Positions 41,462-55,566 of a stretch of DNA of 64,000 nucleotides are shown one piece after another. How positions within the stretch are numbered: the first letter of the stretch is position 1; each line of letters starts with the position of its first letter. A program made the translations under genes and the position numbers. The notes below the pieces were generated by a model. It ran no database searches and had not been told where the DNA came from. It saw only the letters and a program-made list of their open reading frames with translations. The stretch is taken from positions 682,001-746,000 of the forward strand of contig NZ_JACZEP010000002.1 of assembly GCF_014863355.1 (NCBI RefSeq), given 5' to 3'. The stretch is from Aminobacter carboxidus (lineage in GTDB: Bacteria; Pseudomonadota; Alphaproteobacteria; Rhizobiales; Rhizobiaceae).

Positions 41462-42466
41462 ATGGCCACCAGACTTCCCGACAAGATGCTTGCGGTGGCG
41501 ATCTCGCAGCCGGGCGGGCCGCGCGTGCTCAAGGCGGAAAAGCGCGACCTGCCGGAATTGGGCACAGGCGAGATCCTGATCAGGGTGCATGCAGCAGGCG
41601 TCAACCGGCCCGACGTGCAGCAGCGCAAGGGCGCCTACCCCGCGCCGCCTGGCGCCTCCGACCTGCCCGGGCTTGAAGTGTCGGGCGAGGTGGCAGCCCT
41701 TGGCGCAGGTGTTGCGCGTTGGCGGCTTGGCGACGCGGTCTGCGCGCTGACGCCGGGCGGCGGTTATGCCGAATACGCCAGGGTGCACGAAACCAACGCG
41801 CTGCCGCTGCCCACAGGCTTCACCTTCACCGAAGCAGCGGCGGTGCCGGAAACCTTCTTCACCGTCTGGCACAATGTGTTTGAGCGCGGCGCGCTCAAGC
41901 CGGGCGAAACGCTTCTGGTGCATGGCGGCTCGTCGGGCATCGGCACCACAGCGATCCAGCTCGCCTCGGCCTTCGGCGCCTATGTCATTGCCACCGCCGG
42001 CTCCGCCGACAAATGTGCTGCCTGCCTCAAGCTCGGGGCCGACCGCGCCATCAACTACAAGTCGGAGGATTTCGTTCAGGCGGTGAAAGACGCCACCGAC
42101 GGCAAGGGCGCCAATGTCATCTTGGACATGGTCGGCGGCGACTATGTCGGCCGCAACTACCATGCCGCAGCGGTCGACGGCCGCATCGTCCAGATCGCGA
42201 CGCAAGGCGGGGCGGTGGCGAGTGCCGACTTCTCCAAGCTGATGGTCAAGCGGCTGACCCATACCGGCTCGACGCTCAGGCCACGCACCACCGAGTTCAA
42301 GGGCGCGATCGCCGCCGCCCTCGAAGCCCAGGTCTGGCCGCTGCTCGCTGTCCGCCGCGTCGCGCCCGTGATGGACATGATCTTCCCGCTCAAGGAAGCC
42401 TGGCGCGCGCATGAGCGCATGGAAGAGGGCGAACACATCGGCAAGATCGTGCTGGATGTGGGGTGA
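41462..42466 (+). CDS. NAD(P)H-quinone oxidoreductase (PIG3/zeta-crystallin type)
   Basis: Zinc-free medium-chain reductase, 334 aa. RVHAAGVNRPDVQQRKGAYPAPPGASDLPGLEVSGEV is the catalytic-domain signature, and LVHGGSSGIGTTAIQLASAFGA is the NADPH-binding loop. It reduces quinones in the cytoplasm. In other Rhizobiales it is often close to the DUF1013 (TrcR) gene; here these are 13 kb apart, which frames the accessory region. Confidence 0.94.
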   Translation: MATRLPDKMLAVAISQPGGPRVLKAEKRDLPELGTGEILIRVHAAGVNRPDVQQRKGAYPAPPGASDLPGLEVSGEVAALGAGVARWRLGDAVCALTPGGGYAEYARVHETNALPLPTGFTFTEAAAVPETFFTVWHNVFERGALKPGETLLVHGGSSGIGTTAIQLASAFGAYVIATAGSADKCAACLKLGADRAINYKSEDFVQAVKDATDGKGANVILDMVGGDYVGRNYHAAAVDGRIVQIATQGGAVASADFSKLMVKRLTHTGSTLRPRTTEFKGAIAAALEAQVWPLLAVRRVAPVMDMIFPLKEAWRAHERMEEGEHIGKIVLDVG

Positions 42467-42472
42467 GGGGTT

Positions 42473-42600
42473 TCGTCCGGCCGGTGCCGCGAGTTTCTGG
42501 CTCCAGCGGCCCATCAACTGCTCGTAGCCGGCGCGTCCATCGCGTCTCAGACGCGGCCGTTCCTCAATGGGTTGAAAACCGAACGGCTTGGACCGCTCCG
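42473..42600 (-). pseudogene. Possible remnant of a class I methyltransferase N terminus
   Basis: On the minus strand the frame reads GFQPIEERPRLRRDGRAGYE then QLMGRWSQKLAAPAG. The YxxxMGRWSxxLA pattern is how SAM-dependent methyltransferases such as the one at 59724-60527 begin. No methyltransferase body follows. It may mark a breakpoint where the accessory region joined. Short, so low confidence. Confidence 0.35.
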
Positions 42601-42634
42601 CTGCACCATAGGCGGGCGTCGAGCTAGTGATTTG

Positions 42635-42647
42635 ATCGATAGTCGAT
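42635..42647. promoter_or_regulatory. Candidate LysR-type operator before the demethylase gene
   Basis: ATCGA-TAG-TCGAT dyad 88 bp before the demethylase start in an AT-rich stretch, a fitting place for the NodD-like regulator encoded downstream. Symmetry and position only. Confidence 0.35.
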
Positions 42648-42734
42648 ATTTGGATTCACGATTTCAATAAAAGCGTCTCAAGTGACACTCTTTGGCTCAG
42701 GACCTATCCACAAATCAGAGCCAGAGAAGAGTCC

Positions 42735-43751
42735 ATGCCCTTTATCAGAAACACTTGGTACGCAGCAGCTTGGTCGAAAGAAATAAACCGGCAGATGCTG
42801 GCACGTACGATCGCCAATGAAAAGATCGTCTTTTATCGTACCGAAGCCGGTGGTGTCGCCGCAATCGAAGATCGTTGTCCGCACCGTTTTGTTCCACTTC
42901 ATCTTGGCAAGCTTGAAGGTGATATTGTCGAGTGCGCTTATCACGGACTCTGCTTCGATCCGTCCGGCGCTTGCACGCTCAACCCGCACGGAGATGGTAA
43001 GATCCCGCGCGCGGCTCGAGTGAAAAGTTACAAGGTTGTCGAGAAGTACAACGTGGCTTGGCTTTGGCTCGGCGAGGCCGAGTTGGCCGATGAAGGCCTA
43101 ATCGCTGACTTCAGCGTCATGACAGACCCGAGGTTTTGCACGGTCAGCAGCTATCTTCACGTCAAGGCGGGTTACCAGCTCATTTCCGATAACCTTCTCG
43201 ATCTTAGCCATGGTCAGTATATCCATCCCATGTTCAAGAATGCGGAGGGACCGCCACACTTCGAACCGGAAAAGAACCCATCGGACAACGAAGTCTGGGC
43301 ACGCTTCTCGCGGCCGAACCAATACCCAAACAAGTACTTCCAGATGCTCGGCTATCCGGCGGATCGGCGCGGCGACCATCGCAACTTCATGCGTTGGTCG
43401 ACGCCATCACTGCTGCTCCTCGACGTTGGCATGACTGGCGTTGGCCGGCCTGTCGAAGAGGGGCTATCAATCCCCACGTCACACCTGCTCACCCCTGAAA
43501 CGGACCTTACCACTCACTATTTCTGGGCCATGTCGCGTGACTTCCGCCAGGACGAAGCAGCGTTGAGTGAGGAGCTCTTGCGGGTTGGGGTGGCGGTCTT
43601 TGACGACGAAGACAAGCCGGTCATCGAGGCTCAACAGATTGCGATCGACACCAGCGAACTGATGGCGCTCAATCCCGTCTTGCTGCAAACCGATGGGCCG
43701 GCTGTCAGAGCTCGGCGTATCGTCGACGCCAAGCTGCAAGCGGAGCGCTAG
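42735..43751 (+). CDS. Rieske O-demethylase oxygenase, DdmC/VanA type
   Basis: Aromatic-ring-type Rieske non-haem iron oxygenase, 338 aa. The Rieske cluster is CPH at 48-50 and CAYH at 67-70. The iron site is N153, D156, H159 and H164, one residue off the numbering of dicamba demethylase DdmC (as I recall it). The context CPHRFVPL...NPHGDGKIPRA is closer to DdmC than to vanillate demethylase VanA. It removes a methyl group from a methoxy substrate as formaldehyde and takes electrons from the VanB-like reductase at 44952. Base composition is clearly AT-richer than the neighbours. The substrate is unknown. Confidence 0.92.
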   Translation: MPFIRNTWYAAAWSKEINRQMLARTIANEKIVFYRTEAGGVAAIEDRCPHRFVPLHLGKLEGDIVECAYHGLCFDPSGACTLNPHGDGKIPRAARVKSYKVVEKYNVAWLWLGEAELADEGLIADFSVMTDPRFCTVSSYLHVKAGYQLISDNLLDLSHGQYIHPMFKNAEGPPHFEPEKNPSDNEVWARFSRPNQYPNKYFQMLGYPADRRGDHRNFMRWSTPSLLLLDVGMTGVGRPVEEGLSIPTSHLLTPETDLTTHYFWAMSRDFRQDEAALSEELLRVGVAVFDDEDKPVIEAQQIAIDTSELMALNPVLLQTDGPAVRARRIVDAKLQAER

Positions 43752-43767
43752 CATTTTGACCCTTAGA

Positions 43768-43802
43768 GCGCCCCGGAAAGAGCAACGTCTCGTCCGGGGC
43801 GC
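43768..43802 (+). terminator. Hairpin after the demethylase gene
   Basis: GCGCCCCGG and CCGGGGCGC pair perfectly around a 17-base loop, 16 bp after the stop. No T-run follows, so it may attenuate or stabilise rather than fully terminate. Confidence 0.6.
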
Positions 43803-43911
43803 AATTGGCTGTCCTCATCAGGATTGGCAACGAGAGTGATCAAGCGATTTGTGGCCCGCGCTGCGGAGATGAGCTAACGTGCAGGGAGTACCAACCGTTC
43901 AAAAGCGCGTC

Positions 43912-44814
43912 ATGCGATTCCGCCATCTGGACATGAATTTGCTGGTCGCGCTGGACGCAATTCTCACGCACCAGAACATTACGCGTGCGTCCGAGCGGCT
44001 GTGCTTGAGTCAATCCGCCACGAGCGGCATCCTCGCCCGTCTGCGTGAGCATTTTGAGGACGACCTCGTCGTTAGAAGCGGGCGCCGCATGGCGCTCACG
44101 CCCTTGGCAGAGGAGCTGATTAACCCGCTCTCCGCAATTCTCTCCGAAACAGAAAAGCTCCTGGCGATGAGGAGCGCATTTGATCCTGCGAGTTCGGACA
44201 GGCAGTTTACAATCGCTTGTTCCGACTATGTCTGGGCGACGTTAATAGTTGAAATTATTTCGCATTTGCGTCTGATTGCACCTTCGGTGAACATTTATTA
44301 CCAGGGTCCGAGTTCCCGCTTCTACAAAACCGACATCGACCTGCTGATTGTCCCTGACCGATTTATGCTTGAGGACTGCCATTTCATTCCGCTCCCGCCC
44401 AAAGCGTATGTATGCATCGTTTGGGCGAACAACGATTTGATCGGCAAATCGATTTCATTGGAAGACTTCCTCGAAGTCAGGCATGCGCAAGCCTATAGTG
44501 AACGAACGACCTTTATCGAAGCCTGGTTTCTCAAGCAGTTCGGAAAAGCGCCAAGAGCAGGAATAACGGCACCCAGCTTTACGCTGTTGCCGGATGCGTT
44601 GATCGGGACGCATTTCCTCGCATTGGTGCCTCAGGATCTCGCTGAGCGAGCGGCCGCACACCTTCCAATTCGAACAGTCGAGGTCCCGTTTGAGCTGCCT
44701 CTGATGACTGACGTCTTGCAGTGGCGCCGTTCCCATGACCGAGACCCCGGCCTGCAATGGATGCGCGATGAAGTGGTCCGTGTTGCGGCTCAGAAATCAA
44801 AGTCGAAACGCTGA
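43912..44814 (+). CDS. LysR-family regulator of the NodD-like branch
   Basis: 300 aa. The N terminus MRFRHLDMNLLVALDAILTHQNITRASERLCLSQSATSGILARLREHFEDDLVV strongly resembles NodD and related aromatic-responsive regulators. The ATG at 43912 fits this family start; a GTG 11 codons earlier is the alternative. The effector domain (DRQFTIACSDYVW) follows. It lies between the oxygenase and reductase genes on the same strand and probably activates them in response to the aromatic substrate. AT-richer than core genes. Confidence 0.9.
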   Translation: MRFRHLDMNLLVALDAILTHQNITRASERLCLSQSATSGILARLREHFEDDLVVRSGRRMALTPLAEELINPLSAILSETEKLLAMRSAFDPASSDRQFTIACSDYVWATLIVEIISHLRLIAPSVNIYYQGPSSRFYKTDIDLLIVPDRFMLEDCHFIPLPPKAYVCIVWANNDLIGKSISLEDFLEVRHAQAYSERTTFIEAWFLKQFGKAPRAGITAPSFTLLPDALIGTHFLALVPQDLAERAAAHLPIRTVEVPFELPLMTDVLQWRRSHDRDPGLQWMRDEVVRVAAQKSKSKR

Positions 44815-44951
44815 TCTATCGTGCTGACGGATAGCAGCCGTCCATAATGCCAATTTCCCCGCATCGTTGCGCCCGCTTACAATTCTAGAGGTCAGGTTTC
44901 TCCCCGACAGCGTGGGAGCCGGAAATCCTGATCAATGGATTTGTATGACCA

Positions 44952-45920
44952 ATGACCAATGAAGCTAGTCAACTTATGAACGTGCGCATCCGTCGTTTCG
45001 AGGTGATCGCAAAGGATATTGCATGCTTGGAAATTGTTCCTGCCGGTGATTTTGAGCTTCCTCCCTTTTCGGCCGGATCCCACGTCGACGTTTTCATCAA
45101 CGACGGCGTCATTCGACAATACTCGATATGCAACGATCCGGCCGACCCCTCCCACTATCGCCTTGCTGTCCAGGAAGAGGCGACCTCGAGAGGTGGTTCC
45201 AAGGCGATCCATGAGACGTTCCGCACGGATGATGTGATCCGTATCAGCCGGCCGCGAAACAATTTCGGCCTTGCAGAAGATGCGGAGGATATTGTCTTGG
45301 TTGCCGGAGGAATTGGCGTAACGCCGATCCTGTCGATGGCGTACCAATTGTCGCGCCGCCAGGCTGATTTCACCTTTCATTTATGTGCCCGCTCGCGGGA
45401 CCGAGCAGCCTTTGTCGAAGAGATAGCCGCAAGTCCTTTTGCGTCGAGATTTCACCTGCACCTGGATGAAGGCCCGTCCCAGCAGCGCTTCGACCCTTTC
45501 CGTGCTTTTGGAGAAATCGGTCCGCGGGCGACGGTCTACATCTGTGGACCGAAAGGTTTCATGGATTTTGTCGCCGGCGCTGCGAAAAACTCTGGCTGCC
45601 AGGCAGGACGCATTCACGTCGAGAGCTTTACGCCCCTCAAGATCGAAGGCGAAGCTGAGTTCGAAGTAGTAGCGGCGCGCAGTGGAATGACGATAACCGT
45701 GCCCTCCGATAAATCCATTGCCGATGCGCTGATCGATGCCGGCATCATGCCAAAGCTGTCTTGTGAACAGGGCATCTGTGGCTCGTGCCTGACACGCGTG
45801 ATCAGTGGCGATGTCGACCATCGCGATACTTATCAGACTGACAATGAAAAACGGGAAAACAAACAGATGTCCATCTGTTGTTCGAGAGCAAGGTCAAAGC
45901 AGATTGTGCTCGACATCTAA
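44952..45920 (+). CDS. VanB-type phthalate-family reductase
   Basis: Electron-transfer partner of the Rieske oxygenase, 322 aa. Order: FMN-binding beta barrel (RQYSICNDPAD), NAD-binding domain (LVAGGIGVTPILSMA, YICGPKGFMDFV) and a C-terminal plant-type [2Fe-2S] ferredoxin domain with CEQGICGSCLTRV and a fourth Cys in MSICCS. The order is that of class IA reductases. It ends 39 bp before frmA, so the formaldehyde genes may be cotranscribed. AT-richer than frmA. Confidence 0.93.
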   Translation: MTNEASQLMNVRIRRFEVIAKDIACLEIVPAGDFELPPFSAGSHVDVFINDGVIRQYSICNDPADPSHYRLAVQEEATSRGGSKAIHETFRTDDVIRISRPRNNFGLAEDAEDIVLVAGGIGVTPILSMAYQLSRRQADFTFHLCARSRDRAAFVEEIAASPFASRFHLHLDEGPSQQRFDPFRAFGEIGPRATVYICGPKGFMDFVAGAAKNSGCQAGRIHVESFTPLKIEGEAEFEVVAARSGMTITVPSDKSIADALIDAGIMPKLSCEQGICGSCLTRVISGDVDHRDTYQTDNEKRENKQMSICCSRARSKQIVLDI

Positions 45921-45959
45921 TGTTACCCGGCGACGAACAGAAACGACACAAGGATCATC

Positions 45960-47087
45960 ATGAAAACCCGCGCTGCAGTCGCCGTCGGAGCTGGAAAGCC
46001 GCTCGAGATCATGGAGGTCGACCTCGAAGGGCCGCGCGAGGGCGAGGTGCTTGTCGAAATCAAGGCGACCGGCATCTGCCACACCGACGAGTTCACCCTG
46101 TCGGGTGCCGATCCCGAAGGCATCTTCCCTGCCATTTTGGGCCATGAAGGTGCCGGCGTCGTCGTCGATGTCGGCAAGGGTGTGACCTCGCTCAAGAAGG
46201 GCGACCACGTCATCCCGCTCTATACGCCGGAATGCCGCTCCTGCCCGTCCTGCCTCAGCCGCAAGACCAACCTGTGCACCGCGATCCGCTCGACCCAAGG
46301 CCAAGGTCTGATGCCGGATGGCTCGAGCCGGTTTTCGATCGGCAAGGACAAGATCTTCCACTATATGGGCTGCTCGACGTTTTCGAACTTCACCGTGCTG
46401 CCCGAGATCGCGCTGGCCAAGGTCAATCCGGACGCCCCGTTCGACAAGATCTGCTACATCGGTTGCGGGGTAACGACAGGCATAGGCGCGGTCATCAACA
46501 CCGCCAAGGTCGAGATCGGTTCGACGGCGATCGTCTTTGGCCTCGGCGGCATCGGCCTCAATGTGCTGCAGGGTCTGCGCCTTGCCGGTGCCGACATGAT
46601 CATCGGCGTCGACATCAACAATGACCGCAAGGCCTGGGGCGAAAAGTTCGGCATGACGCATTTCGTCAATCCGAAGGAGGTCGAAGGCGACATCGTGCCT
46701 TACCTCGTCAACATGACCAAGCGTGGTGCCGACCAGATCGGCGGTGCCGACTACACCTTCGACTGCACCGGCAACGTCAAGGTGATGCGCCAGGCGCTCG
46801 AAGCGTCGCATCGCGGCTGGGGCGAGTCGATCGTCATCGGTGTCGCCGGTGCCGGCCAGGAGATTGCGACGCGTCCGTTCCAACTGGTCACCGGGCGGAC
46901 CTGGAAGGGCACCGCCTTTGGTGGCGCGCGTGGCCGTACTGACGTTCCGAAGATCGTCGACTGGTACATGGAGGGCAAGATCCTGATCGACCCGATGATC
47001 ACGCATACGCTCAAGCTCGAAGACATCAACAAGGGTTTCGACCTGATGCATGCGGGCGAAAGCATCCGCAGCGTGGTCGTCTACTGA
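45960..47087 (+). CDS. frmA: S-(hydroxymethyl)glutathione dehydrogenase (class III alcohol dehydrogenase)
   Basis: Oxidises the glutathione adduct of formaldehyde to S-formylglutathione with NAD+, 375 aa. Catalytic zinc ligands lie in TGICHTDEF and GHEGAG; structural zinc is CRSCPSCLSRKTNLC; the coenzyme loop is VFGLGGIGLNVLQGL. GC-rich with core-like codon use, unlike the genes before it. Its position right after demethylase genes fits removal of released formaldehyde. Confidence 0.96.
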   Translation: MKTRAAVAVGAGKPLEIMEVDLEGPREGEVLVEIKATGICHTDEFTLSGADPEGIFPAILGHEGAGVVVDVGKGVTSLKKGDHVIPLYTPECRSCPSCLSRKTNLCTAIRSTQGQGLMPDGSSRFSIGKDKIFHYMGCSTFSNFTVLPEIALAKVNPDAPFDKICYIGCGVTTGIGAVINTAKVEIGSTAIVFGLGGIGLNVLQGLRLAGADMIIGVDINNDRKAWGEKFGMTHFVNPKEVEGDIVPYLVNMTKRGADQIGGADYTFDCTGNVKVMRQALEASHRGWGESIVIGVAGAGQEIATRPFQLVTGRTWKGTAFGGARGRTDVPKIVDWYMEGKILIDPMITHTLKLEDINKGFDLMHAGESIRSVVVY

Positions 47088-47144
47088 CGCTCCTTTTTTG
47101 AGGGGGGCGCATCTCGAATAGTCATCAACAGGGAGGAACAGGAC

Positions 47145-47717
47145 ATGGCTTCAGTTTCGATACATCCGGCACTCGACGGCGGGATCAAACCCGGCAGTGC
47201 TGCCTTCACCGGCGGCACGCTCGTCTGCGCCTGCGCTGACAAACCGGTCAAGGTGGCGATCAAGGGCCAGGTCGCCCACAACCATGCCTGCGGCTGCACC
47301 AAGTGCTGGAAGCCGGAGGGGGCCAAGTTCTCGGTCGTTGCCGTCACCGCGCATGAGAATGTGACGGTGTTGGAAAATGGCGACAAGCTTGCGGTCGTCG
47401 ATCCGTCCGCACTGATCCAGCGCCACGCCTGCAAGGGCTGCGGCGTGCACATGTATGGCCCGGTCGAACGCGACCATGCCTTCAAGGGCCTCGACTTCAT
47501 CCATCCCGAGCGCTTCCAGGAAGCGGGTTGGGCCGAGCCGGGCTTTGCCGCCTTCGTGTCGTCGATCATCGAGGCGGGCGTCGACCCCGCCGAAATGGAC
47601 GGCGTGCGCGGCCAGCTGAAGGAGCTTGGGCTCGAGCCCTATGACTGCCTGTCGCCCGGATTGATGGACTACATCGCGACATGGACGGCGAAGAAATCGG
47701 GCGTGCTGAAGGCATAG
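47145..47717 (+). CDS. gfa: S-(hydroxymethyl)glutathione synthase
   Basis: Glutathione-dependent formaldehyde-activating enzyme, 190 aa. Zinc motifs are [18 protein letters not shown] and [12 protein letters not shown]. It condenses formaldehyde with glutathione to give the FrmA substrate. GGGAGGAACAGGAC precedes the ATG. It lies 57 bp downstream of frmA and completes the detoxification pair; no S-formylglutathione hydrolase (frmB) is nearby. Confidence 0.95.
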
Positions 47718-47781
47718 CCAATTAAAATCCGTCGCTGCAGCAACCCAATAGAATGGCGTAAGCCGACGAGGGTGGCGTGCA

Positions 47782-48792
47782 ATGCACAATCAACAATGGG
47801 AGAAGAAATTGTCTAAGATACTGAGAATAATGAGCTTGGTGATGTTTGCTTACAGCGCTGCAATGCTGTCTACGCCCGCGTGGGCAGCAGATCCTGTAAA
47901 ACTTAGGTTTAGTTGGAAGTTGAAGGGGGAATATGGGTTTTTCTATCTTGGAAAAGAGAAGGGCTTGTATCAACGCAATAATGTTGACCTAGATTTGGGA
48001 GAAGGTGCCGGAGCGCAAGCGGCCCTAGGTGCGCTTGTTCAAGGCAACGAGGACGTTGTCATTGTACCTGCGATATTTGCTATCTCGGCAATCCAGAAGG
48101 GCATGCCCGTCAAGATCGCGGCAATCTACCAGAAACGCACCCCGTTCGCATTCATCTCGAAGCTGGACCATGCTGTTACAAAGCCAAGCGAGATCGAAGG
48201 CCGGTCGCTTGCAGTTTCGGTCGGTGACACCGCAACGACCTATCTGGGTGCCTTCTGCAAGGCCAACAAAGTCGATTGCAGCAAAATCCAGCAAATTCAG
48301 TTGGATCCTCAACTGAAGATTCCACAATTCATGCAAGGGCGCGTCGATCTGATTACCATCTACACCAATGTTGATCTGCCACTCATCGAACAGAGGACCG
48401 GGATGAAGTTTGCTGTCCTCGACCTTCCGAACTTTGGTTTGTCGGTGCCAGGACTGGCGGCGGTGGTAAGCGACCGTGGCATTGCCGAAAAGCCCGACGT
48501 CCTCAAACGCTTCCTACAGGCTACCAAAGAAGCCATCGAACTTACTCGCGAGGATCCCGCATCGGCCACCGCTGCGTTGCTTCAAGCCTGGAGCGCGGCT
48601 CCCTCCCAGGAATTGGTCCAACAACAAATAGTCGCAACTTCTGCGACTTTGGACACAGGGAGTGAGAAACCAATCGGCTGGATCAGCGACGACCTTATCA
48701 ATGAGGCCTTGGACCTAATTTCCACTAATGGGGAGATAGGCGAGCGCCGCCCTCCTTCGGATTTTTACACCAACGAGCTTTTGGAGAAATAG
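47782..48792 (+). CDS. Orphan ABC substrate-binding protein (NMT1/SsuA-like)
   Basis: Periplasmic solute-binding protein, 336 aa. A signal peptide ends at STPAWAAD. RFSWKLKGEYGFFYLGKEKGLYQRNNVDLDLGEGAG and DVVIVPAIFAISAIQKG are typical of the NMT1/THI5 and nitrate/sulfonate-binding family. A TTG at 47809 with GGGAGAAGA before it would give a neater signal peptide (SKILRIMSLVMFAYS). No permease or ATPase gene adjoins. AT-rich like the demethylase block. It may bind the demethylase substrate, but this is inference. Confidence 0.88.
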   Translation: MHNQQWEKKLSKILRIMSLVMFAYSAAMLSTPAWAADPVKLRFSWKLKGEYGFFYLGKEKGLYQRNNVDLDLGEGAGAQAALGALVQGNEDVVIVPAIFAISAIQKGMPVKIAAIYQKRTPFAFISKLDHAVTKPSEIEGRSLAVSVGDTATTYLGAFCKANKVDCSKIQQIQLDPQLKIPQFMQGRVDLITIYTNVDLPLIEQRTGMKFAVLDLPNFGLSVPGLAAVVSDRGIAEKPDVLKRFLQATKEAIELTREDPASATAALLQAWSAAPSQELVQQQIVATSATLDTGSEKPIGWISDDLINEALDLISTNGEIGERRPPSDFYTNELLEK

Positions 48793-48807
48793 AGTCGGTG
48801 TCTGGTT

Positions 48808-48835
48808 GAACCGCCTGGCGATGCCTAGGCGGTTC
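48808..48835 (+). terminator. Hairpin after the substrate-binding protein gene
   Basis: GAACCGCC and GGCGGTTC enclose a 12-base loop, 16 bp after the stop. No T-run. The remaining 48836-49097 holds no recognisable gene; its text TTGACCCCCGAACAGAACA did not match anything I know. Confidence 0.5.
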
Positions 48836-49097
48836 GACTGATTGTTTGCCCATCCTGTCTATCGGCGCCCAATTTTGTTCCCTTGGTACAGGGGGCCGGC
48901 GAGCGCCCTATAAAGTAAGCTCCCAGAGCGGCCGCTTTTGCCGTGTAGCTGCCGAAACCAGACCATCAGCTTTTGACCCCCGAACAGAACATGTCCTTCG
49001 CTCGATAAGGTAGCCTTTTCGCCAAACAGACACGCCGTTCCCTTCTGATTGGTCCGCGATTATGGTGGTGCCGACTTCTGGCCAACATTAACCGCAC

Positions 49098-50735
49098 GTG
49101 ACCTCACCCCTCTCCAATCCTCGCCTCCTCGGCCTCGCGCTCTGGCTCGCAGCAATGGCGGCGTTCGCGCTCTATTCGGTCGAGACGTCCAAGGCGCGGC
49201 TGGCGGGTGAGCTGGAGGTGACCGGGCGGACGTTGCACCGGCTGATCTCGCAGCGGGCGGCGCAGCATGATGCGCATATGACCAGCCTGATCGCGCTGAC
49301 CAGCGCCGACCCGCCCTTGGGCGCGGTGCGGCAGGTGATGGAGAGCATATCAAGGTTTTATCCGCGCATCGCCTGGATCGCGCTGGTTTCGCTTGGTGGG
49401 GAAGATGGTGGGGCGGCTGGTGCCAAGGGCGAAGGGGCGGCGGCCGGCGCCGGCGTCGCGCCCGGCGCAGTCAGGACGCTGGTCGAGGTGCCCGAGGGCG
49501 GCGGCGAGAACCTCGCACCGTTGCGCGGGGCGATCGGCGAACAGCTGCGCGGCAAGATCTCGGTCTATACGAGCCAGAATGGGCGCTATCTGCTGGCCAA
49601 GCGGGCGCAGGCGCCTTCTGATGCGGCACTGGTGTTCGGCATCGACGCCAGGCTGCTGCTGGAGCCGGAGGAGCGCCCCGGCTGGGCGCATCTCAGGCTC
49701 GTGCTTGACGGCCAGGAGCTGCTGGACCTGCCGGCGGACGAGGGCGCGGGCAGCGCGCTTGTGACAGCACCGCATTTCGAAAAGGTGATCGACGGCGAGG
49801 GGCAGCGCATCCTGCTTACGCTCGACCGGGCTTTGCCGCTGGCAGCACTGTTGCCGCCGGGCCAGTTGCTGGGCTTTGCCGGCTTGGCGGGCCTTGCGTC
49901 GTTTGCGCTGATGTTTGCCTTGCGCCAGCGGGCGGCGGCGCAGGCATCGCTGCAAACGGCACGGCAAGCGGAGGCGCGCGCATTGTTGCAGGAGCGGGAA
50001 ACACTTCTGGCGCATGCCTCGCGCGTCAACGCCATGGGCGAGCTTGCGTCCGGCATGGCGCATGAGCTGACGCAGCCGCTGACGGCGGTGCTGAGCCGCA
50101 GCCAGGCGGCACTGAGGCTCGCGGGCGCCGACAAGCCCGATCTCGGGCTGATCACCCAGGCGCTTAACGTCAATGTGCGCGAGGCCAAGCGCGCCGGCGA
50201 AATGCTGAAACGCATGCGCGACTATGCCTCCAACAAGGCGCCGGCGCCTGTCGCGTCTGATCTGAACGGGATCGTTACCGAGATCGTGGCGCTGACTTCT
50301 GCCGATCTGGTGCGGCGCGGCATCGCGCTGGAGCTTGCGCTCGGCGAGGACAGGCCGGAGGCGGTGGTCGACCCTATCGAGATGGAGCAGGTGCTGCACA
50401 ATCTGATCCGCAATGCGGCCGATGCGCTGGAAGGCGCCGTGGGCGCGCGGATCAGCATCGAAACGCGCGTCCTGGGCGGCGAGGTGCAGATCGTGGTGTC
50501 GGACAACGGGCCGGGCATCGCAGCTGCGGTGCTGCCAAAGCTGTTTGTGCCGTTCTTCACCACCAAGGCCGACGGCATGGGGCTGGGCCTGTCCTTGTGC
50601 CAGACGCTGGTGGAGCGGGTCGACGGGCGGATCGAGGCGGACAACGCCGCCGGTGGCGGGGCGCGGTTCGTCATCACGCTACCCGCTGCATTAACCCTGA
50701 AATCGGCACCGATTTCCGGAAAGCACGATGCGTAG
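49098..50735 (+). CDS. Membrane sensor histidine kinase
   Basis: Two-component sensor, 545 aa, GTG start. An N-terminal transmembrane segment (LLGLALWLAAMAAFALYSV) and a second at about residues 252-275 bracket a periplasmic sensing region of some 230 residues with a glycine/alanine-rich insert. The kinase core has the H-box ASGMAHELTQPLTAVLSRS, N-box LIRNAADALEGAV, G1 VVSDNGPGIAAAV and F/G2 KADGMGLGLSLCQTL. It resembles the FixL/DctB-type cores. It pairs with the response regulator 163 bp downstream. Confidence 0.93.
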   Translation: MTSPLSNPRLLGLALWLAAMAAFALYSVETSKARLAGELEVTGRTLHRLISQRAAQHDAHMTSLIALTSADPPLGAVRQVMESISRFYPRIAWIALVSLGGEDGGAAGAKGEGAAAGAGVAPGAVRTLVEVPEGGGENLAPLRGAIGEQLRGKISVYTSQNGRYLLAKRAQAPSDAALVFGIDARLLLEPEERPGWAHLRLVLDGQELLDLPADEGAGSALVTAPHFEKVIDGEGQRILLTLDRALPLAALLPPGQLLGFAGLAGLASFALMFALRQRAAAQASLQTARQAEARALLQERETLLAHASRVNAMGELASGMAHELTQPLTAVLSRSQAALRLAGADKPDLGLITQALNVNVREAKRAGEMLKRMRDYASNKAPAPVASDLNGIVTEIVALTSADLVRRGIALELALGEDRPEAVVDPIEMEQVLHNLIRNAADALEGAVGARISIETRVLGGEVQIVVSDNGPGIAAAVLPKLFVPFFTTKADGMGLGLSLCQTLVERVDGRIEADNAAGGGARFVITLPAALTLKSAPISGKHDA

Positions 50736-50880
50736 ATTCAACATGTGCCGGAGCGGCTTTTGTGCGTCCACACGCGCGGCGCGTAGATTTGGGCGGAGCG
50801 GCCTTAACGCGTCTACACGCGCGGCGCTTAGATTCGATAGGTGGCGGAGCGGCCTTTACGCGTCCACAGGACGCGCGGCG
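50731..50880. repeat. Three tandem ~50-bp repeats between kinase and regulator
   Basis: Units start at 50731, 50782 and 50827, each running TAGATTNNNNN, GGCGGAGCGGCCTTTACGCG then TCCACACGCGCGGCG with small variations. GGAGCGGC and ACGCGTCTACACGCG suggest each unit can fold. Lying between two genes that should be coordinately made, it could tune the regulator-to-kinase ratio. Confidence 0.85.
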
Positions 50881-50897
50881 CTGCGGGGAGCGAAAGC

Positions 50898-51494
50898 ATG
50901 AGCCGGTACAAGGTCTATCTGATCGACGATGACGAGGCGGTGCGCGAGGCGATCGCGTTCCTGCTCGGCACCTATGGCATCGAGGTCGAGACCTTCGGCG
51001 AACCGGCAATTTTTCTGGCGCATGTCCAGGAGGACCGGCCGGGCTGCCTGGTGGTCGACCTGCGCATGCCCGAGGTGTCGGGGCTGCAGCTGCACCAGAA
51101 GCTTGGCGAGCGCGGCATCGACTGGCCGACGATCATGATAACAGGTCATGGCGACGTCGCCGCCTGCCGCCGCGCCTTCAAGGCCGGCATCCAGGATTTT
51201 CTGACCAAGCCCGTCGATGGCGAGGTGCTGGTCGAAGCACTGCAGCAGGGTTTTTCGAGCCTCGACGCCAGGTTGGAAAAGCGCGAGGCGCGCACGCTTT
51301 TGGCCAGGCTGACCGAGCGCGAGCGCGAGGTGCTCGACATGGTGGCGCGCGGCTGGGCCAGCAAGGAGGTGGCGCAGGCACTCGACGTATCGGTGCGCAC
51401 CATCGACGCGCACCGGGCGAAGATCGCCGAAAAACTCGGCACAAGCTCAGTGGCCGAGTTCGTGCGGCTGACGCTGCTGGAAAAGGGTGCGTGA
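50898..51494 (+). CDS. FixJ/NarL-type response regulator
   Basis: 198 aa. The receiver domain has acidic pocket DDDEA, phospho-acceptor Asp in LVVDLRMPEVSG (about residue 54), Thr in MITGHGD and Lys in FLTKPVDGE. The LuxR-type DNA-binding domain reads TEREREVLDMVARGWASKEVAQALDVSVRTIDAHRAKIAEKLG. GGGGAGCGAAAGC precedes the ATG. It is controlled by the kinase upstream and probably acts on the palindrome at 51561-51578. Confidence 0.95.
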   Translation: MSRYKVYLIDDDEAVREAIAFLLGTYGIEVETFGEPAIFLAHVQEDRPGCLVVDLRMPEVSGLQLHQKLGERGIDWPTIMITGHGDVAACRRAFKAGIQDFLTKPVDGEVLVEALQQGFSSLDARLEKREARTLLARLTEREREVLDMVARGWASKEVAQALDVSVRTIDAHRAKIAEKLGTSSVAEFVRLTLLEKGA

Positions 51495-52257: not shown

Positions 52258-55122
52258 TCAGAAGCCCATGGCGAAGCTGCCGCGCAGCTGGTGCGCTGCG
52301 GTGCCGTCGCCGACGGCGCCGGCATAGCTGACATCGATGCGGGCATTGTCCCTGACGGCAAAGCTCAGGCCGGCATCGTAAACGAAGGCGTCCGACGCCA
52401 GGCTGTCGCCGACGACGGAAAACGGTGCCGTGCCGGCAAGCGCAAGGCGCGACAGCGGTGCGTCGCTTTCGGTGTGGCGCCAGCCGAGCATGCCCTGCAG
52501 CGTGACGGATCGCGCGCCGGCCGGCAGTTCGGTGCTTGCCCTGATGCCGAGGGTGGAGATGGTCGCGTCCTGGTCGCCGGCTGCGCCGGTCAGTGCCGCG
52601 GCGCCGCCGGTCTCGGCAAATCCGTCGCTGCCGGTCCTGACATAAGCGATGCCGGCAAACGGCTCGACATAGGACGCGCCGAGGCCAAGGCGGTAGCCGA
52701 CGTCGCCATGGACGAGGGTGGTTGTTGCGTCGTAGCCGGCGGCGAGGCTGTCGGAGAAGCCGCCGAAGGCGACGCGACGCTCGCTCGACAGGTCGTGCCA
52801 CGCCTGGATGGCGGCAAGCTGCAGGCGAAGCGCACCAAGTTCGGCCCCGGCATAGAGGCCGGCATGCAAGGTGTCGGCGGCGCCGGTGGCGGCCCGCCCA
52901 TCCCGGGAGATGCTGCTGCTGGAATAGCCGGCCATGGCGCCGAGACGGATGCCTTCGGCGACTTCGCCGTCGAGGCCGCCGAACAGTGCCGCGGTCTTGA
53001 CCTTGAAGCCATCCGTGTCGTCCACGCCTGACAATTCCGAGATATTGCCCACACCCTCGACCCAGAAGGCACGCAATGGCTTGCCGGCCGCTGTGTCGAA
53101 GGTCTGGCGGATGCGGTTGTGCACGGCATCCTGTGCCAGTGTCGCTGATATGATGCCGGCGTTCATCAGCGAGGGGTGGATGTCGCCCGACAACTGGTCG
53201 AGCGCGTCGCGCGCGCCGCCGGCGGAAAGGCCAAGCAGGCCGCCGACCATCGGGTTGCCGGCCGGCAGATTGTCGAGCGCGCCGGCCACGGCCTGCTGGT
53301 TGTCGGTGATGGCGACGGTGCCGAATGCGGCACCATTGAAATGCAAGGTGAGCCAGACCTCGGTGGCGTTCCTGTAGTCGAGCGCACTGTCGAGGAAGGC
53401 AAAGTCGTCGGTGACGCCGCTGAAGGCGCCCGTCAGCGCTCCGGTTGTCGACAGGATCAGATATTCGTCCGACAGCGCACCCGTGCCGTTGGCGATGACA
53501 TGGACCGAAGATGTCGCGTCGATGGAGGCGGTGCCGGCGGCGATGCGGCTGGCTGTGCCGCCAATGCCGACCTCGTAAAGCGAGGCTGCCTGGAAGGCGA
53601 AATCGCCGGCCACGTTGAAGGTTCCATCGGGCGCGACGGTGGCGCCGGAGCGGATCGTGACGTTGCCGAGATCGCCGCTGCCTTCAAGCCTGGCGGTCGA
53701 AAAGACCTCGAGCGCGCCGCCGAGGCCATCGCCGATCCACAAGGTCCCGCCCACAACGTCGGTCGTTCCGGTGAAGGCCGAGCTGTTGCCCAGCAGGCGG
53801 CTTGTTCCGCTCAGATGCCTGATCGCGCCGCTGCCTGAAATGGCCGCGGCAAAATCATGGGCATCGTCGGTGTGATTAAAGACGAGCGTGCCGCTGCCCG
53901 GTCCGAAAACGACTTTCGGTGCGTCGATGATGCCCGCAGCGACGGCCGCGTCGCCCTCGGCCGCGCCGATGTTGAGCGTGCCCGTGGAGCCGCCGGCGAA
54001 GCCGATCTGGATGCCGGCAGCTGCCGTCGAGATCGTGCCACCGTGGCTGACAGTTGCGGTACCAGCGCCATTCCAGCCGAGCATGACATATGTGCTCGAC
54101 ACGACGCGGGAGCCCGAGCCGGAGACGATGAGGTCGCCGACGCCGGAGGCGTTGGCTCCGACGATCACTGCTGCGCTTTGCAATGTGCCGCCTGCCGTGA
54201 CGCTGGCCGAACCGGCCGAATTGACGCCTATCCTGATGTCGACGGTCGAGGTGAGGGCAGAGTCCGTACCATCGATGGTCAGCGTGCCCGAGGAGCCGGT
54301 CCCACTGCCCAGAAACGTACGATTGTTGGCCGTAACCTTCGCGCCGCCGGAGATATGCAATTCACCGTCGCCGGCCTGGCCGAGGATCAGGTTGGCGTTG
54401 GTGATCTGCCACAGCGTATCGGCACCCGAAATGTTGGCGATGCCGTGGCCGCTCGCCTGCTGGCCCAGGCTTGCTGAGTAGCTGCTCGCGGTTGCGCCCA
54501 GGCTGAGATTGAAGGTGCCTTCGCCGCCGTCGCCGACAACAAATCCGCTGTTGCCGGTGCTCAGCGACGAGTTCGTGCCGGTCACGTTGACCAGGCCGAC
54601 GCTGCCCGCCTGGGTGGCCACCGACGCGTGCGCAGCTTCAACACTACCGCCAGCCGCGATGTTCAATGTCCCCGATCCGTAGAAGCCGACATTGAGGTCG
54701 CCGGTCGTCCAGGTCGAGCTGCCGCCCGTAACCGTCGCTTGGCCTGTCTGGCTGCTGGCTGGTGGTGCGCCGTTGGCCGACGAGTTGCCAATGATCGCCG
54801 ATGTCGAAGCCAGGCTGCCGCCATTGACGATGTTGAGCGAGGCGCCGGCGACGCCGCCGATGAAGATGGTGCTTGTGCTTGCCCCCGGGGTGCCAACGCT
54901 TGGGGCATTGGGCGCGCCCGGCTGGTTGACGATCACGGCTGTTCCTGCGGGAGCGCTGCCGCCCGACCAGTTGCCGCCGTTGAACCAGTCGCTGCTTTGG
55001 TCCCCTTCCCAGGTCTGGGCATGAGCAGCAGCGGCAAGGGTGCACAAGACGGTGCTGGCCATGCCGGCTAGCGAAACAGCGCGCAACAATCCGCGCATGG
55101 CCGCATTGTGGCCAGTTGTCAT
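52258..55122 (-). CDS. Autotransporter, full length
   Basis: 954 aa. Signal peptide MTTGHNAAMRGLLRAVSLAGMASTVLCTLAAAAHA. The passenger starts QTWEGDQSSDWFNGGNWSGG and holds many PEP-like/beta-helix repeats with the pattern GSGTLNIAAGGS...G. The linker NQQAVAGALDNLPAGNP precedes the beta-barrel (from about FWVEGVGNISELSG at base 53085), which ends with terminal Phe (GSFAMGF). No protease or catalytic motif is seen, so adhesion or aggregation is most likely. Start at 55122 follows GGGGGGCG. Paralogue of the 1-2411 protein. Confidence 0.95.
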   Translation of the reverse strand: MTTGHNAAMRGLLRAVSLAGMASTVLCTLAAAAHAQTWEGDQSSDWFNGGNWSGGSAPAGTAVIVNQPGAPNAPSVGTPGASTSTIFIGGVAGASLNIVNGGSLASTSAIIGNSSANGAPPASSQTGQATVTGGSSTWTTGDLNVGFYGSGTLNIAAGGSVEAAHASVATQAGSVGLVNVTGTNSSLSTGNSGFVVGDGGEGTFNLSLGATASSYSASLGQQASGHGIANISGADTLWQITNANLILGQAGDGELHISGGAKVTANNRTFLGSGTGSSGTLTIDGTDSALTSTVDIRIGVNSAGSASVTAGGTLQSAAVIVGANASGVGDLIVSGSGSRVVSSTYVMLGWNGAGTATVSHGGTISTAAAGIQIGFAGGSTGTLNIGAAEGDAAVAAGIIDAPKVVFGPGSGTLVFNHTDDAHDFAAAISGSGAIRHLSGTSRLLGNSSAFTGTTDVVGGTLWIGDGLGGALEVFSTARLEGSGDLGNVTIRSGATVAPDGTFNVAGDFAFQAASLYEVGIGGTASRIAAGTASIDATSSVHVIANGTGALSDEYLILSTTGALTGAFSGVTDDFAFLDSALDYRNATEVWLTLHFNGAAFGTVAITDNQQAVAGALDNLPAGNPMVGGLLGLSAGGARDALDQLSGDIHPSLMNAGIISATLAQDAVHNRIRQTFDTAAGKPLRAFWVEGVGNISELSGVDDTDGFKVKTAALFGGLDGEVAEGIRLGAMAGYSSSSISRDGRAATGAADTLHAGLYAGAELGALRLQLAAIQAWHDLSSERRVAFGGFSDSLAAGYDATTTLVHGDVGYRLGLGASYVEPFAGIAYVRTGSDGFAETGGAAALTGAAGDQDATISTLGIRASTELPAGARSVTLQGMLGWRHTESDAPLSRLALAGTAPFSVVGDSLASDAFVYDAGLSFAVRDNARIDVSYAGAVGDGTAAHQLRGSFAMGF

Positions 55123-55566
55123 GATACGCCCCCCAAAAAATCGTCGTCTCAAAATGGTTTTCCACGCGCAGCAGGCTGCCGCTCGAATGGAGTGTTCAAA
55201 TATGCCGCCAGTAATCCCGCCCAAAGAAAAACGTCGTCAGCGTATTACGCGAGCCGACTCTCGGCGGGATAGCTTGCAGAAAACTTGGATGTCCCCTTTC
55301 CATTGAATAGTAAGCTTTTGCTGATAGATCAACCGGGTCAAGGCCGGTTTCTACACTTGACCGCCACCCGGAATGGCTGCGAGCAGCTGCGGCATCGCCG
55401 GGGTTGGTCGCCTTCCGGAAGGTGGCTCCGAAGGCCGCTTTGGCGCGGTTCCAAAATCGTTGCGGTGGCCGGCGAATGCGTCTATATACGGGCCGAATTT
55501 CCCATTTTCTGGTGGTCTGACCACCGCCCGCGTGAGGGACGCGGGCGAGCGAAGAGGATATATCGC
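55123..55566. promoter_or_regulatory. Divergent promoter region of autotransporter and trcR
   Basis: The 444-bp gap holds no supportable gene. It must contain both promoters; a TATATA element at 55481-55488 lies about 80 bp before trcR. An AT-richer section (55290-55340) lies toward the autotransporter side. No repeat is obvious. Confidence 0.4.

What the first reader, a model, noticed from the sequence alone, without database searches (positions are those of the whole stretch)
42600..48800. AT-richer demethylase island wired directly into formaldehyde detoxification
A DdmC-like Rieske oxygenase (all Rieske and iron ligands present), a NodD-like LysR regulator and a VanB-type reductase lie on one strand and run into frmA and gfa. 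O-demethylation yields formaldehyde, which FrmA and Gfa remove. The oxygenase, regulator and reductase look AT-richer than frmA/gfa, as does the orphan substrate-binding protein behind gfa. It appears that a foreign demethylation module has landed on, or captured, native formaldehyde genes. The DdmC-like rather than VanA-like active site suggests a substrate other than vanillate.
Basis: partly seen in the sequence, partly recalled or inferred. Interest (0 to 1): 0.85.

Follow-up and report, generated by a model that had tools for sequence, protein, structure and literature searches.

The report
Mobile demethylase operon with formaldehyde cassette
A transferable gene cluster that probably strips methyl groups from a small molecule carries its own formaldehyde-clearing genes, and one of those genes appears to be repeatedly overwritten by the host's own copies, so the clean-up enzyme matches the host although the rest of the cluster looks foreign.

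Summary
Six same-strand genes (oxy, lysR, red, frmA, gfa, sbp; 42735-48792) form a discrete island (about 42539-49011) in an Aminobacter genome. Four are compositional outliers; frmA and gfa are host-like. One relative shows the unoccupied site, and A. anthyllidis carries the same unit elsewhere. The island occurs in 6 of 151 genomes searched, the window's own included: gene order intact in four, split inside frmA in two. The oxygenase's nearest solved structures are the O-demethylases DdmC and GdmA. A conserved LysR-type palindrome precedes both oxy and red, so frmA-gfa probably obey the demethylase regulator. Bradyrhizobium relatives lack frmA-gfa there.

The new point: the island's frmA follows the host, not the operon. 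Copies at three loci group by genome, clearly in four genomes and only partly in G002; locus-based groupings are rejected. The window copy is a mosaic of its co-resident copies. Versus G002, frmA's silent-site divergence is host-like although its neighbours are more diverged here and mostly less diverged in a second, NdmCDE-like operon. Gene conversion explains this best. The substrate is unknown.

The parts
42539..49011 (.). island: stretch present here in place of most of a methyltransferase gene
   Evidence: BLAST against G009 locus L137: native homology resumes at 49012; a 52-nt stretch of the methyltransferase gene at 42487-42538. Homology with A. anthyllidis L029 spans 42545-48981 in two pieces.
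42487..42538 (-). remnant of the 5' end of a resident methyltransferase gene at the left edge
   Evidence: 88.7% match to L137:709-761, inside an ORF with Methyltransf_11 and related domains; the same stretch matches the ORF in L138, L140, L142
42623..42643 (.). candidate LysR palindrome upstream of oxy (GCTAGTGATTTGATCGATAGT)
   Evidence: at 108-112 nt before the oxy start in 9 of 11 loci; exact in two Bradyrhizobium loci
42735..43751 (+). oxy: Rieske oxygenase, Rieske + VanA_C, DdmC/GdmA-like
43879..44814 (+). lysR: LysR-type regulator (start 43879 or 43912)
44815..44835 (.). candidate LysR palindrome upstream of red (TCTATCGTGCTGACGGATAGC)
   Evidence: at most 4 of 14 mismatches in 9 of 10 loci compared upstream of red; Pandoraea lacks it
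44952..45920 (+). red: phthalate-dioxygenase-reductase/VanB-type FMN-NAD-2Fe-2S reductase
45960..47087 (+). frmA: S-(hydroxymethyl)glutathione dehydrogenase; mosaic of the other two resident copies
47145..47717 (+). gfa: S-(hydroxymethyl)glutathione synthase
47782..48792 (+). sbp: NMT1/THI5-like binding protein; N-terminal stretch read by eye as a signal sequence
48803..48840 (+). terminator-like hairpin, 16 pairs, directly behind sbp
   Evidence: 7 such sites found, 6.9 expected by shuffling; this one has the longest stem

Best explanation
The island is a mobile, substrate-induced demethylation unit. The binding protein captures a methylated small molecule in the periplasm. The two-component Rieske monooxygenase (Oxy fed by Red) hydroxylates its methyl group, releasing formaldehyde. 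Gfa and FrmA turn formaldehyde into S-formylglutathione. The LysR protein probably binds a palindrome in front of oxy and a second one in front of red, so red-frmA-gfa-sbp rise together with oxy. An ancestor of the Aminobacter/Mesorhizobium form gained a frmA-gfa pair behind red; such pairs also occur behind other genes on rhizobial plasmids. Since then frmA has been repeatedly overwritten by other frmA copies in each genome through gene conversion limited to the coding sequence. Shown by computation: gene content, island limits, conserved order, conserved palindromes, and frmA following the genome. Inferred: demethylation, transport, regulation, induction, gene conversion and its direction. 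Unknown: the substrate.
For: Oxygenase: Foldseek E 8.4e-35 for DdmC and 5.2e-33 for GdmA (guaiacol O-demethylase), next group 7.8e-21 (model pLDDT 93.7); 36.8% and 36.0% identity. Order oxy-lysR-red-frmA-gfa-sbp intact in 4 genomes and split inside frmA in 2. Palindromes: two exact sites in L032, counted on both strands, against 0 in 100 shuffles. Island site. Host-following frmA: identity table and tree; AU tests reject the locus groups (p 0.0004 for all four island copies, 1.2e-46 or less for the other three groupings tried); homology between co-resident copies ends within 13 nt of the coding sequence; mosaic in the window copy, 0 of 20000 permutations as clustered. Fourfold-site divergence window vs G002: oxy 0.63, lysR 0.68, red 0.53, sbp 0.68, but frmA 0.19 and gfa 0.25; at native locus A 8 of 10 neighbours lie at 0.23-0.34 and frmA at 0.24; at the second operon 14 of 15 neighbours lie below its frmA (0.21), 12 of 15 below 0.13. 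Contigs of G003 and G007 break inside frmA, and each of the 11 fragments has its best match in its own genome, some by small margins.
Against: No biochemical or expression data. No sigma-70-like promoter was found by consensus in 42400-49200 (0; shuffles 2.5). In the window both palindromes are degenerate (3 mismatches to the strict consensus); 5 sites of that quality lie in the window, and for the site before oxy 21 of 100 shuffles gave a match as good. The gfa tree is unresolved, so the host-following claim is firm for frmA only. In G002 the grouping is weak: island and locus-A copies join at 84/68 and are unresolved, and the locus-B copy falls outside. Against A. anthyllidis frmA (0.215) does not stand out from its island neighbours (0.16-0.39). 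Against Mesorhizobium L-8-3, part of frmA's low silent divergence (0.32) is a property of frmA itself, since the native-locus frmA is also lower (0.35) than its neighbours (0.46-0.61). Linking contigs in G003 and G007 is an inference. No transport permease or ATPase lies in the island.
Confidence: 0.72

Rival explanations
1. Each lineage independently inserted its own native frmA(-gfa) behind red, so copies group by genome without gene conversion.
For: Copies group by genome; composition is host-like.
Against: The same slot and order in six genomes would need repeated identical insertions; the oxygenases of five of the six (G002 was not in the tree) form one supported clade (98/95). The intragenic mosaic and the same pattern at the second, NdmCDE-like operon are not expected.
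Confidence: 0.1
2. The oxygenase is a Rieske monooxygenase that is not a demethylase (ring or side-chain hydroxylase), and frmA-gfa came along by chance.
For: VanA_C-type oxygenases are diverse (recalled); two of three recalled dicamba contacts are replaced; hydroxylases such as SxtT and KshA share the fold.
Against: The nearest solved enzymes are two O-demethylases; frmA-gfa are kept in all six island carriers, behind a conserved candidate regulator site.
Confidence: 0.15
3. The enzyme is an N-demethylase of an N-heterocycle rather than an O-demethylase.
For: The binding protein's nearest folds are thiamin- and pyrimidine-binding proteins and Thi5 (14-17% identity); Bradyrhizobium neighbours include allantoinase/hydantoinase-like and deaminase-like amidohydrolases, all below curated cut-offs; an unrelated NdmCDE-like operon with frmA sits in the same genome.
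Against: NdmA and NdmB are clearly further away than DdmC and GdmA.
Confidence: 0.3

Closest known systems
Dicamba O-demethylase DdmC (PDB 3gb4)
   Same: Closest solved structure by sequence and fold; all Rieske and iron ligands
   Different: 36.8% identity; aligned N230 and W285 replaced by L229 and V284; partner is one PDR/VanB-type reductase here, whereas DdmC works with separate ferredoxin and reductase (recalled)
Guaiacol O-demethylase GdmA of Rhizorhabdus wittichii RW1 (PDB 7qwt)
   Same: Second closest fold and sequence
   Different: 36.0% identity; separate long branch, not joined to the window's clade
Caffeine N-demethylation cluster ndmABCDE with frmA and frmB, Pseudomonas putida CBB5 (PMC4408171, passages)
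   Same: Rieske-type demethylase genes flanked by glutathione-dependent formaldehyde oxidation genes
   Different: Other oxygenases and reductase; frmB and no gfa named in the passages seen, which say nothing of a host-following frmA
Syringate operon with formaldehyde dehydrogenase fdhA2 under LysR-type GalR, Pseudomonas sp. NGC7 (PMC12314914, passages)
   Same: Inducible formaldehyde dehydrogenase tied to demethylation, beside a constitutive frmAC; LysR control
   Different: Glutathione-independent FdhA2; sits with galBCD, not with the oxygenase genes

Membership tests
VanA_C-type Rieske oxygenases (DdmC/VanA group) | N-terminal Rieske domain with Cys-His/Cys-His ligands and C-terminal VanA_C domain | tested here: met
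VanA_C-type Rieske oxygenases (DdmC/VanA group) | 2-His-1-Asp iron site and bridging Asp | tested here: met
   H159, H164, D293, D156 invariant in 30 rows
Dicamba O-demethylase (DdmC) | dicamba contacts N230, H251, W285 (recalled; paper not held) | tested here: not met
   aligned residues L229, H250, V284
Dicamba O-demethylase (DdmC) | three-component system with separate ferredoxin (recalled) | tested here: not met
   single FMN-NAD-2Fe-2S reductase, nearest PDR 2pia; none of the six island genes is a separate ferredoxin
Vanillate demethylase VanAB | two-component: oxygenase plus VanB/PDR-type reductase | tested here: met
Vanillate demethylase VanAB | activity on vanillate / close sequence kinship with VanA | not tested
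   no VanA reference sequence obtained; no assay
FrmA (class III ADH) | TIGR02818 above curated cut-off | tested here: met
   589 bits against 543.95
Gfa | TIGR02820 above curated cut-off | tested here: met
   318 bits against 234.55
NodD subgroup of LysR | match to a curated model of the subgroup | tested here: inconclusive
   BsrA and LeuO best, below cut-off; 25 of 35 families shown. The site before red fits ATC-N9-GAT, a nod-box half motif (recalled); the window's site before oxy keeps only the right half
Concerted evolution by gene conversion | paralogues more alike within a genome than orthologues between genomes | tested here: met
   clear in G000, G001, G006, G072; partial in G002
Concerted evolution by gene conversion | intragenic tracts matching different donors | tested here: met
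   G000: 25 of 30 sites shared with the locus-B copy lie in nt 270-648, 19 of 26 shared with the locus-A copy in nt 726-1119; 0 of 20000 permutations as clustered; weaker in G001 (p 0.008) and G002 (p 0.004)

The most novel reading that the evidence does not exclude
frmA is a host-templated part: wherever a frmA copy sits in a transferred demethylase operon, recombination with a resident copy keeps rewriting it, so an incoming catabolic operon is automatically fitted with the host's own version of its detoxification enzyme. The same has happened at two unrelated demethylase operons in one genus and at one of them in a Mesorhizobium.
Probability: 0.4. Interest if true: 0.75.

Novelty: new variant of a known kind. 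Interest (0 to 1): 0.6.

Why it matters
Demethylase operons carrying formaldehyde genes are known. What is unusual here is a natural test, inside one operon, of which genes keep a foreign history and which are rewritten by the host. It shows that GC content and gene trees can mislead about what was transferred: frmA looks native although it sits inside the transferred unit. It also offers a system for measuring gene conversion between short dispersed repeats in bacteria, and a six-gene unit for finding a new demethylase substrate, possibly a methylated plant compound or pollutant.

Tried and rejected
Rejected: that the island landed on resident frmA-gfa (the unoccupied site in G009 holds a methyltransferase gene). 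No terminal inverted or direct repeats seen at the island ends (matches of 7-8 nt only). Not settled: gfa history (unresolved; G072 has a single gfa at E 1e-40, the island one). No help: the PDB by sequence for the binding protein (0 matches at 1e-5); Mesorhizobium L-8-3 in papers (1 paper listed, not opened); a 20-nt palindrome pattern with the wrong spacing (0 in L033 with up to 3 mismatches). tRNA target: no tRNA in the window. A Rieske operon on Shinella plasmid pShin-07 also lies upstream of a frmA-gfa pair, but its oxygenase is only 34% identical, so it is a separate combination.

The draft also overstated the grouping of the G002 copies.

Rows dropped: one search built the tree from 17 of 19 frmA copies (two 846-nt partial copies of G005 left out). 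One search compared 3 of 5 other carriers (G003 and G007 lack a contiguous frmA). One search used 29 of 32 loci plus the window (L057, L059, L060 left out as shorter matches). The oxygenase tree has no G002 row. One search left out two divergent 1110-nt copies and the two partial ones, used 4 of 6 fetched plasmid loci and an arbitrary 6 family loci. One search kept only pairs covering at least 80%. The locus groups were defined by genome position, but after the tree had been seen.
Full report
What is there. The six genes are present on the + strand: oxy 42735-43751, lysR 43879 (or 43912)-44814, red 44952-45920, frmA 45960-47087, gfa 47145-47717, sbp 47782-48792, with the expected families. Gaps are 39 nt (red-frmA), 57 nt (frmA-gfa) and 64 nt (gfa-sbp). 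A 16-pair terminator-like hairpin follows sbp at 48803-48840; the scan found no more such sites than shuffled sequence gives (7 against 6.9), so its stem length and position are the argument, not the count.

Composition. Against 45 other genes predicted in the same window, GC3 of oxy, lysR, red and sbp is lower than in every one, while frmA and gfa (0.822) sit at the mean (0.825); a codon-adaptation measure agrees. The same contrast exists in A. anthyllidis (frmA 0.854, gfa 0.813, the others 0.53-0.61) and, less sharply, in G002 and Mesorhizobium L-8-3.

Names. G000 shares their genus, so the host is taken to be an Aminobacter.

An island with known edges. The oxygenase closest to the window's is that of A. 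anthyllidis (98%). Homology between the window and A. anthyllidis spans 42545-48981, with other genes around it there and an integrase-domain fragment starting 59 nt beyond its end. In G009, an Aminobacter without this oxygenase (its best match is 37% identical), the site reads qor, methyltransferase, histidine kinase; the window keeps a 52-nt stub of the methyltransferase and rejoins G009 at 49012. Only G009's fetched stretch reached the kinase. The oxygenase at 85% or more occurs in 6 of 151 genomes searched, the window's own included: 5 of 10 in the genus and one Mesorhizobium; the next best match is 39%. The genes around the unit differ between the genomes read, except that G002 and G003 share theirs.

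Conserved order. The full order is intact in the window, A. anthyllidis, Mesorhizobium sp. L-8-3 and G002. In G003 and G007 one contig ends 95 nt into frmA after oxy-lysR-red, and another begins near the end of frmA and goes on with gfa and sbp; that these contigs belong together is inferred. Three Bradyrhizobium loci and Pandoraea terrae have oxy, red, sbp and lysR but no frmA or gfa within the fetched stretch. In Pandoraea an ABC permease and ATPase lie upstream of oxy, and in a Xanthobacteraceae bin beside a distant sbp, which suggests that sbp serves uptake. In the oxygenase tree five of the six frmA-carrying loci (G002 not included) form one clade (98/95) beside Bradyrhizobium (100/99 together), and the Mesorhizobium oxygenase falls inside the Aminobacter ones (94/89, not a starred branch). 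A single gain of frmA-gfa followed by transfer fits this.

The enzyme. By sequence the nearest solved proteins are DdmC and GdmA; by predicted fold the same two, with a wide gap to saxitoxin-pathway oxygenases and methylxanthine N-demethylases. GdmA as the identity of 7qwt comes from passages of PMC12445004 and the entry title. All metal ligands are kept. Of three dicamba contacts that I recall, two are changed. The reductase is of the phthalate dioxygenase reductase type, as in vanillate demethylases and unlike the three-component dicamba system (recalled). The binding protein's predicted fold is nearest to thiamin-, pyrimidine- and Thi5-type proteins at 14-17% identity. That, with cyclic-amide-hydrolase-like genes near Bradyrhizobium homologues, hints at an N-heterocyclic substrate, but only weakly.

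Regulation. Aligned upstream regions show a palindrome close to ACTATCG-N7-CGATAGT, 108-112 nt before the start of oxy in 9 of 11 loci, and a second one upstream of red in 9 of 10 loci compared (Pandoraea lacks it), followed there by a conserved stretch. In one Bradyrhizobium locus both are exact, against none in 100 shuffles. In the window both are degenerate: 5 sites of that quality lie in the window, and 21 of 100 shuffles matched as well as the site before oxy, so the case rests on conservation. If real, red-frmA-gfa-sbp is its own unit under the demethylase regulator.

frmA follows the genome. The host has three frmA copies: locus A beside the DNA polymerase III alpha gene, locus B in an operon of two Rieske-less VanA_C subunits, a Rieske-reductase fusion, a GST-domain protein and an S-formylglutathione hydrolase gene (NdmCDE-like), and locus C, this island. 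Loci A and B are syntenic across species, yet the copies group by genome. Identity of the island copy to co-resident copies against the best foreign copy: G000 96.3-96.6% against 94.2%; G001 96.2% against 93.4%; G002 94.8-96.5% against 93.2%; L-8-3 99.6% against 89.1%. G006 has copies A and B only, which join with full support. In G002 the tree is weak: island and locus-A copies join at 84/68, unresolved, and the locus-B copy falls outside. Holding the island copies, the locus-A copies or the locus-B copies together is rejected. Homology between co-resident copies ends within 13 nt of the coding sequence. In the window frmA, 25 of 30 sites shared only with the locus-B copy lie in nt 270-648, and 19 of 26 shared only with the locus-A copy lie in nt 726-1119 (0 of 20000 permutations as clustered; weaker in G001 and G002, p 0.008 and 0.004).

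A two-sided control. Between the window and G002, fourfold-site divergence is 0.53-0.68 for oxy, lysR, red and sbp but 0.19 for frmA and 0.25 for gfa. At locus B, 12 of 15 neighbours are below 0.13 and one of 15 is above frmA's 0.21. At native locus A, frmA is 0.24 and 8 of 10 neighbours lie at 0.23-0.34. So frmA has about the same divergence everywhere, above most neighbours in one operon and below them in the other. Two comparisons are less telling. Against A. anthyllidis the island itself is recent, and frmA (0.215) lies within its neighbours' range (0.16-0.39); at locus B 11 of 14 neighbours are below frmA (0.23). Against L-8-3 the island genes stand at 0.63-0.67 and frmA at 0.32, but native-locus frmA is also low (0.35 against 0.46-0.61), so part of that contrast belongs to frmA itself. 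Gene conversion between co-resident copies explains the whole; repeated independent insertion does not explain the mosaic or the locus-B result. For gfa the tree is unresolved, and L-8-3 has no second gfa at E 1e-40.

A recurring pair. frmA-gfa pairs 55-117 nt apart lie behind other genes on rhizobial plasmids: downstream of a different Rieske operon in Shinella, behind an annotated methanol/ethanol PQQ dehydrogenase row in R. leguminosarum, an isocitrate lyase gene in Aminobacter SR38, and an aspartate ammonia-lyase gene in Mesorhizobium, there with a Tn3 transposase behind (four annotated records read of 1604 with a match). In 61 family genomes 49 have one frmA at E 1e-150, 4 have two or three, 8 have none, so three near-identical copies are unusual.

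Known background. Demethylase clusters with formaldehyde genes are in print: caffeine in P. putida CBB5 (PMC4408171, passages) and syringate in Pseudomonas NGC7 (PMC12314914, passages). In the main text of a genus-wide Aminobacter study (PMC8235418, passages) the words vanillate and caffeine do not occur, and the demethylation genes named in the passages are those for methylamines. Of PMC8963497 (methoxydotrophy in Methylobacterium) I saw passages. Searches for gene conversion with formaldehyde dehydrogenase showed no bacterial formaldehyde dehydrogenase paper among the titles listed (10 of 425, 2 of 2), and searches for Rieske demethylase with Aminobacter listed reviews only or nothing (with Bradyrhizobium); that is the extent of my check on novelty.

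Noticed in passing
L063:4038-10569 (same genome, contig C2): NdmCDE-like operon with two different VanA_C subunits that lack a Rieske domain, a Rieske-reductase fusion, a GST-domain protein, frmA and an S-formylglutathione hydrolase gene, near a thiC gene; conserved in G001, G002, G006. Most neighbours are nearly identical between G000 and G002, which suggests recent transfer.
   Followed up: partly
L144:8002-9757, L145:7992-9755, L146:7992-9809, L147:8001-9795: frmA-gfa pairs attached to unrelated genes on rhizobial plasmids, three of them with a transposase gene within about 4 kb
   Followed up: partly
L036:5954-6949: isochorismatase-type hydrolase fused to a glyoxalase-type domain, in the neighbourhood of the oxygenase homologue
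   Followed up: no
L033:365-9314: Bradyrhizobium gene row beside the oxygenase: allantoinase-like, DpaA-like, octopine-dehydrogenase-like, D-amino-acid dehydrogenase, deaminase-like, M24 creatinase-like and muconate-cycloisomerase-like genes; similar rows in L032 and L035, pathway unknown
   Followed up: partly
L102:1707-2687: second homologue of the binding protein (45%) beside a molybdopterin-dehydrogenase FAD-binding subunit gene in A. aganoensis
   Followed up: no
window 52258-55224: autotransporter (beta-domain) gene with T5SS/PEP-CTERM-associated repeats, on the minus strand
   Followed up: no
window 49098-51494: histidine kinase and response regulator nearest to FixL/FixJ models but below their cut-offs
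   Followed up: no
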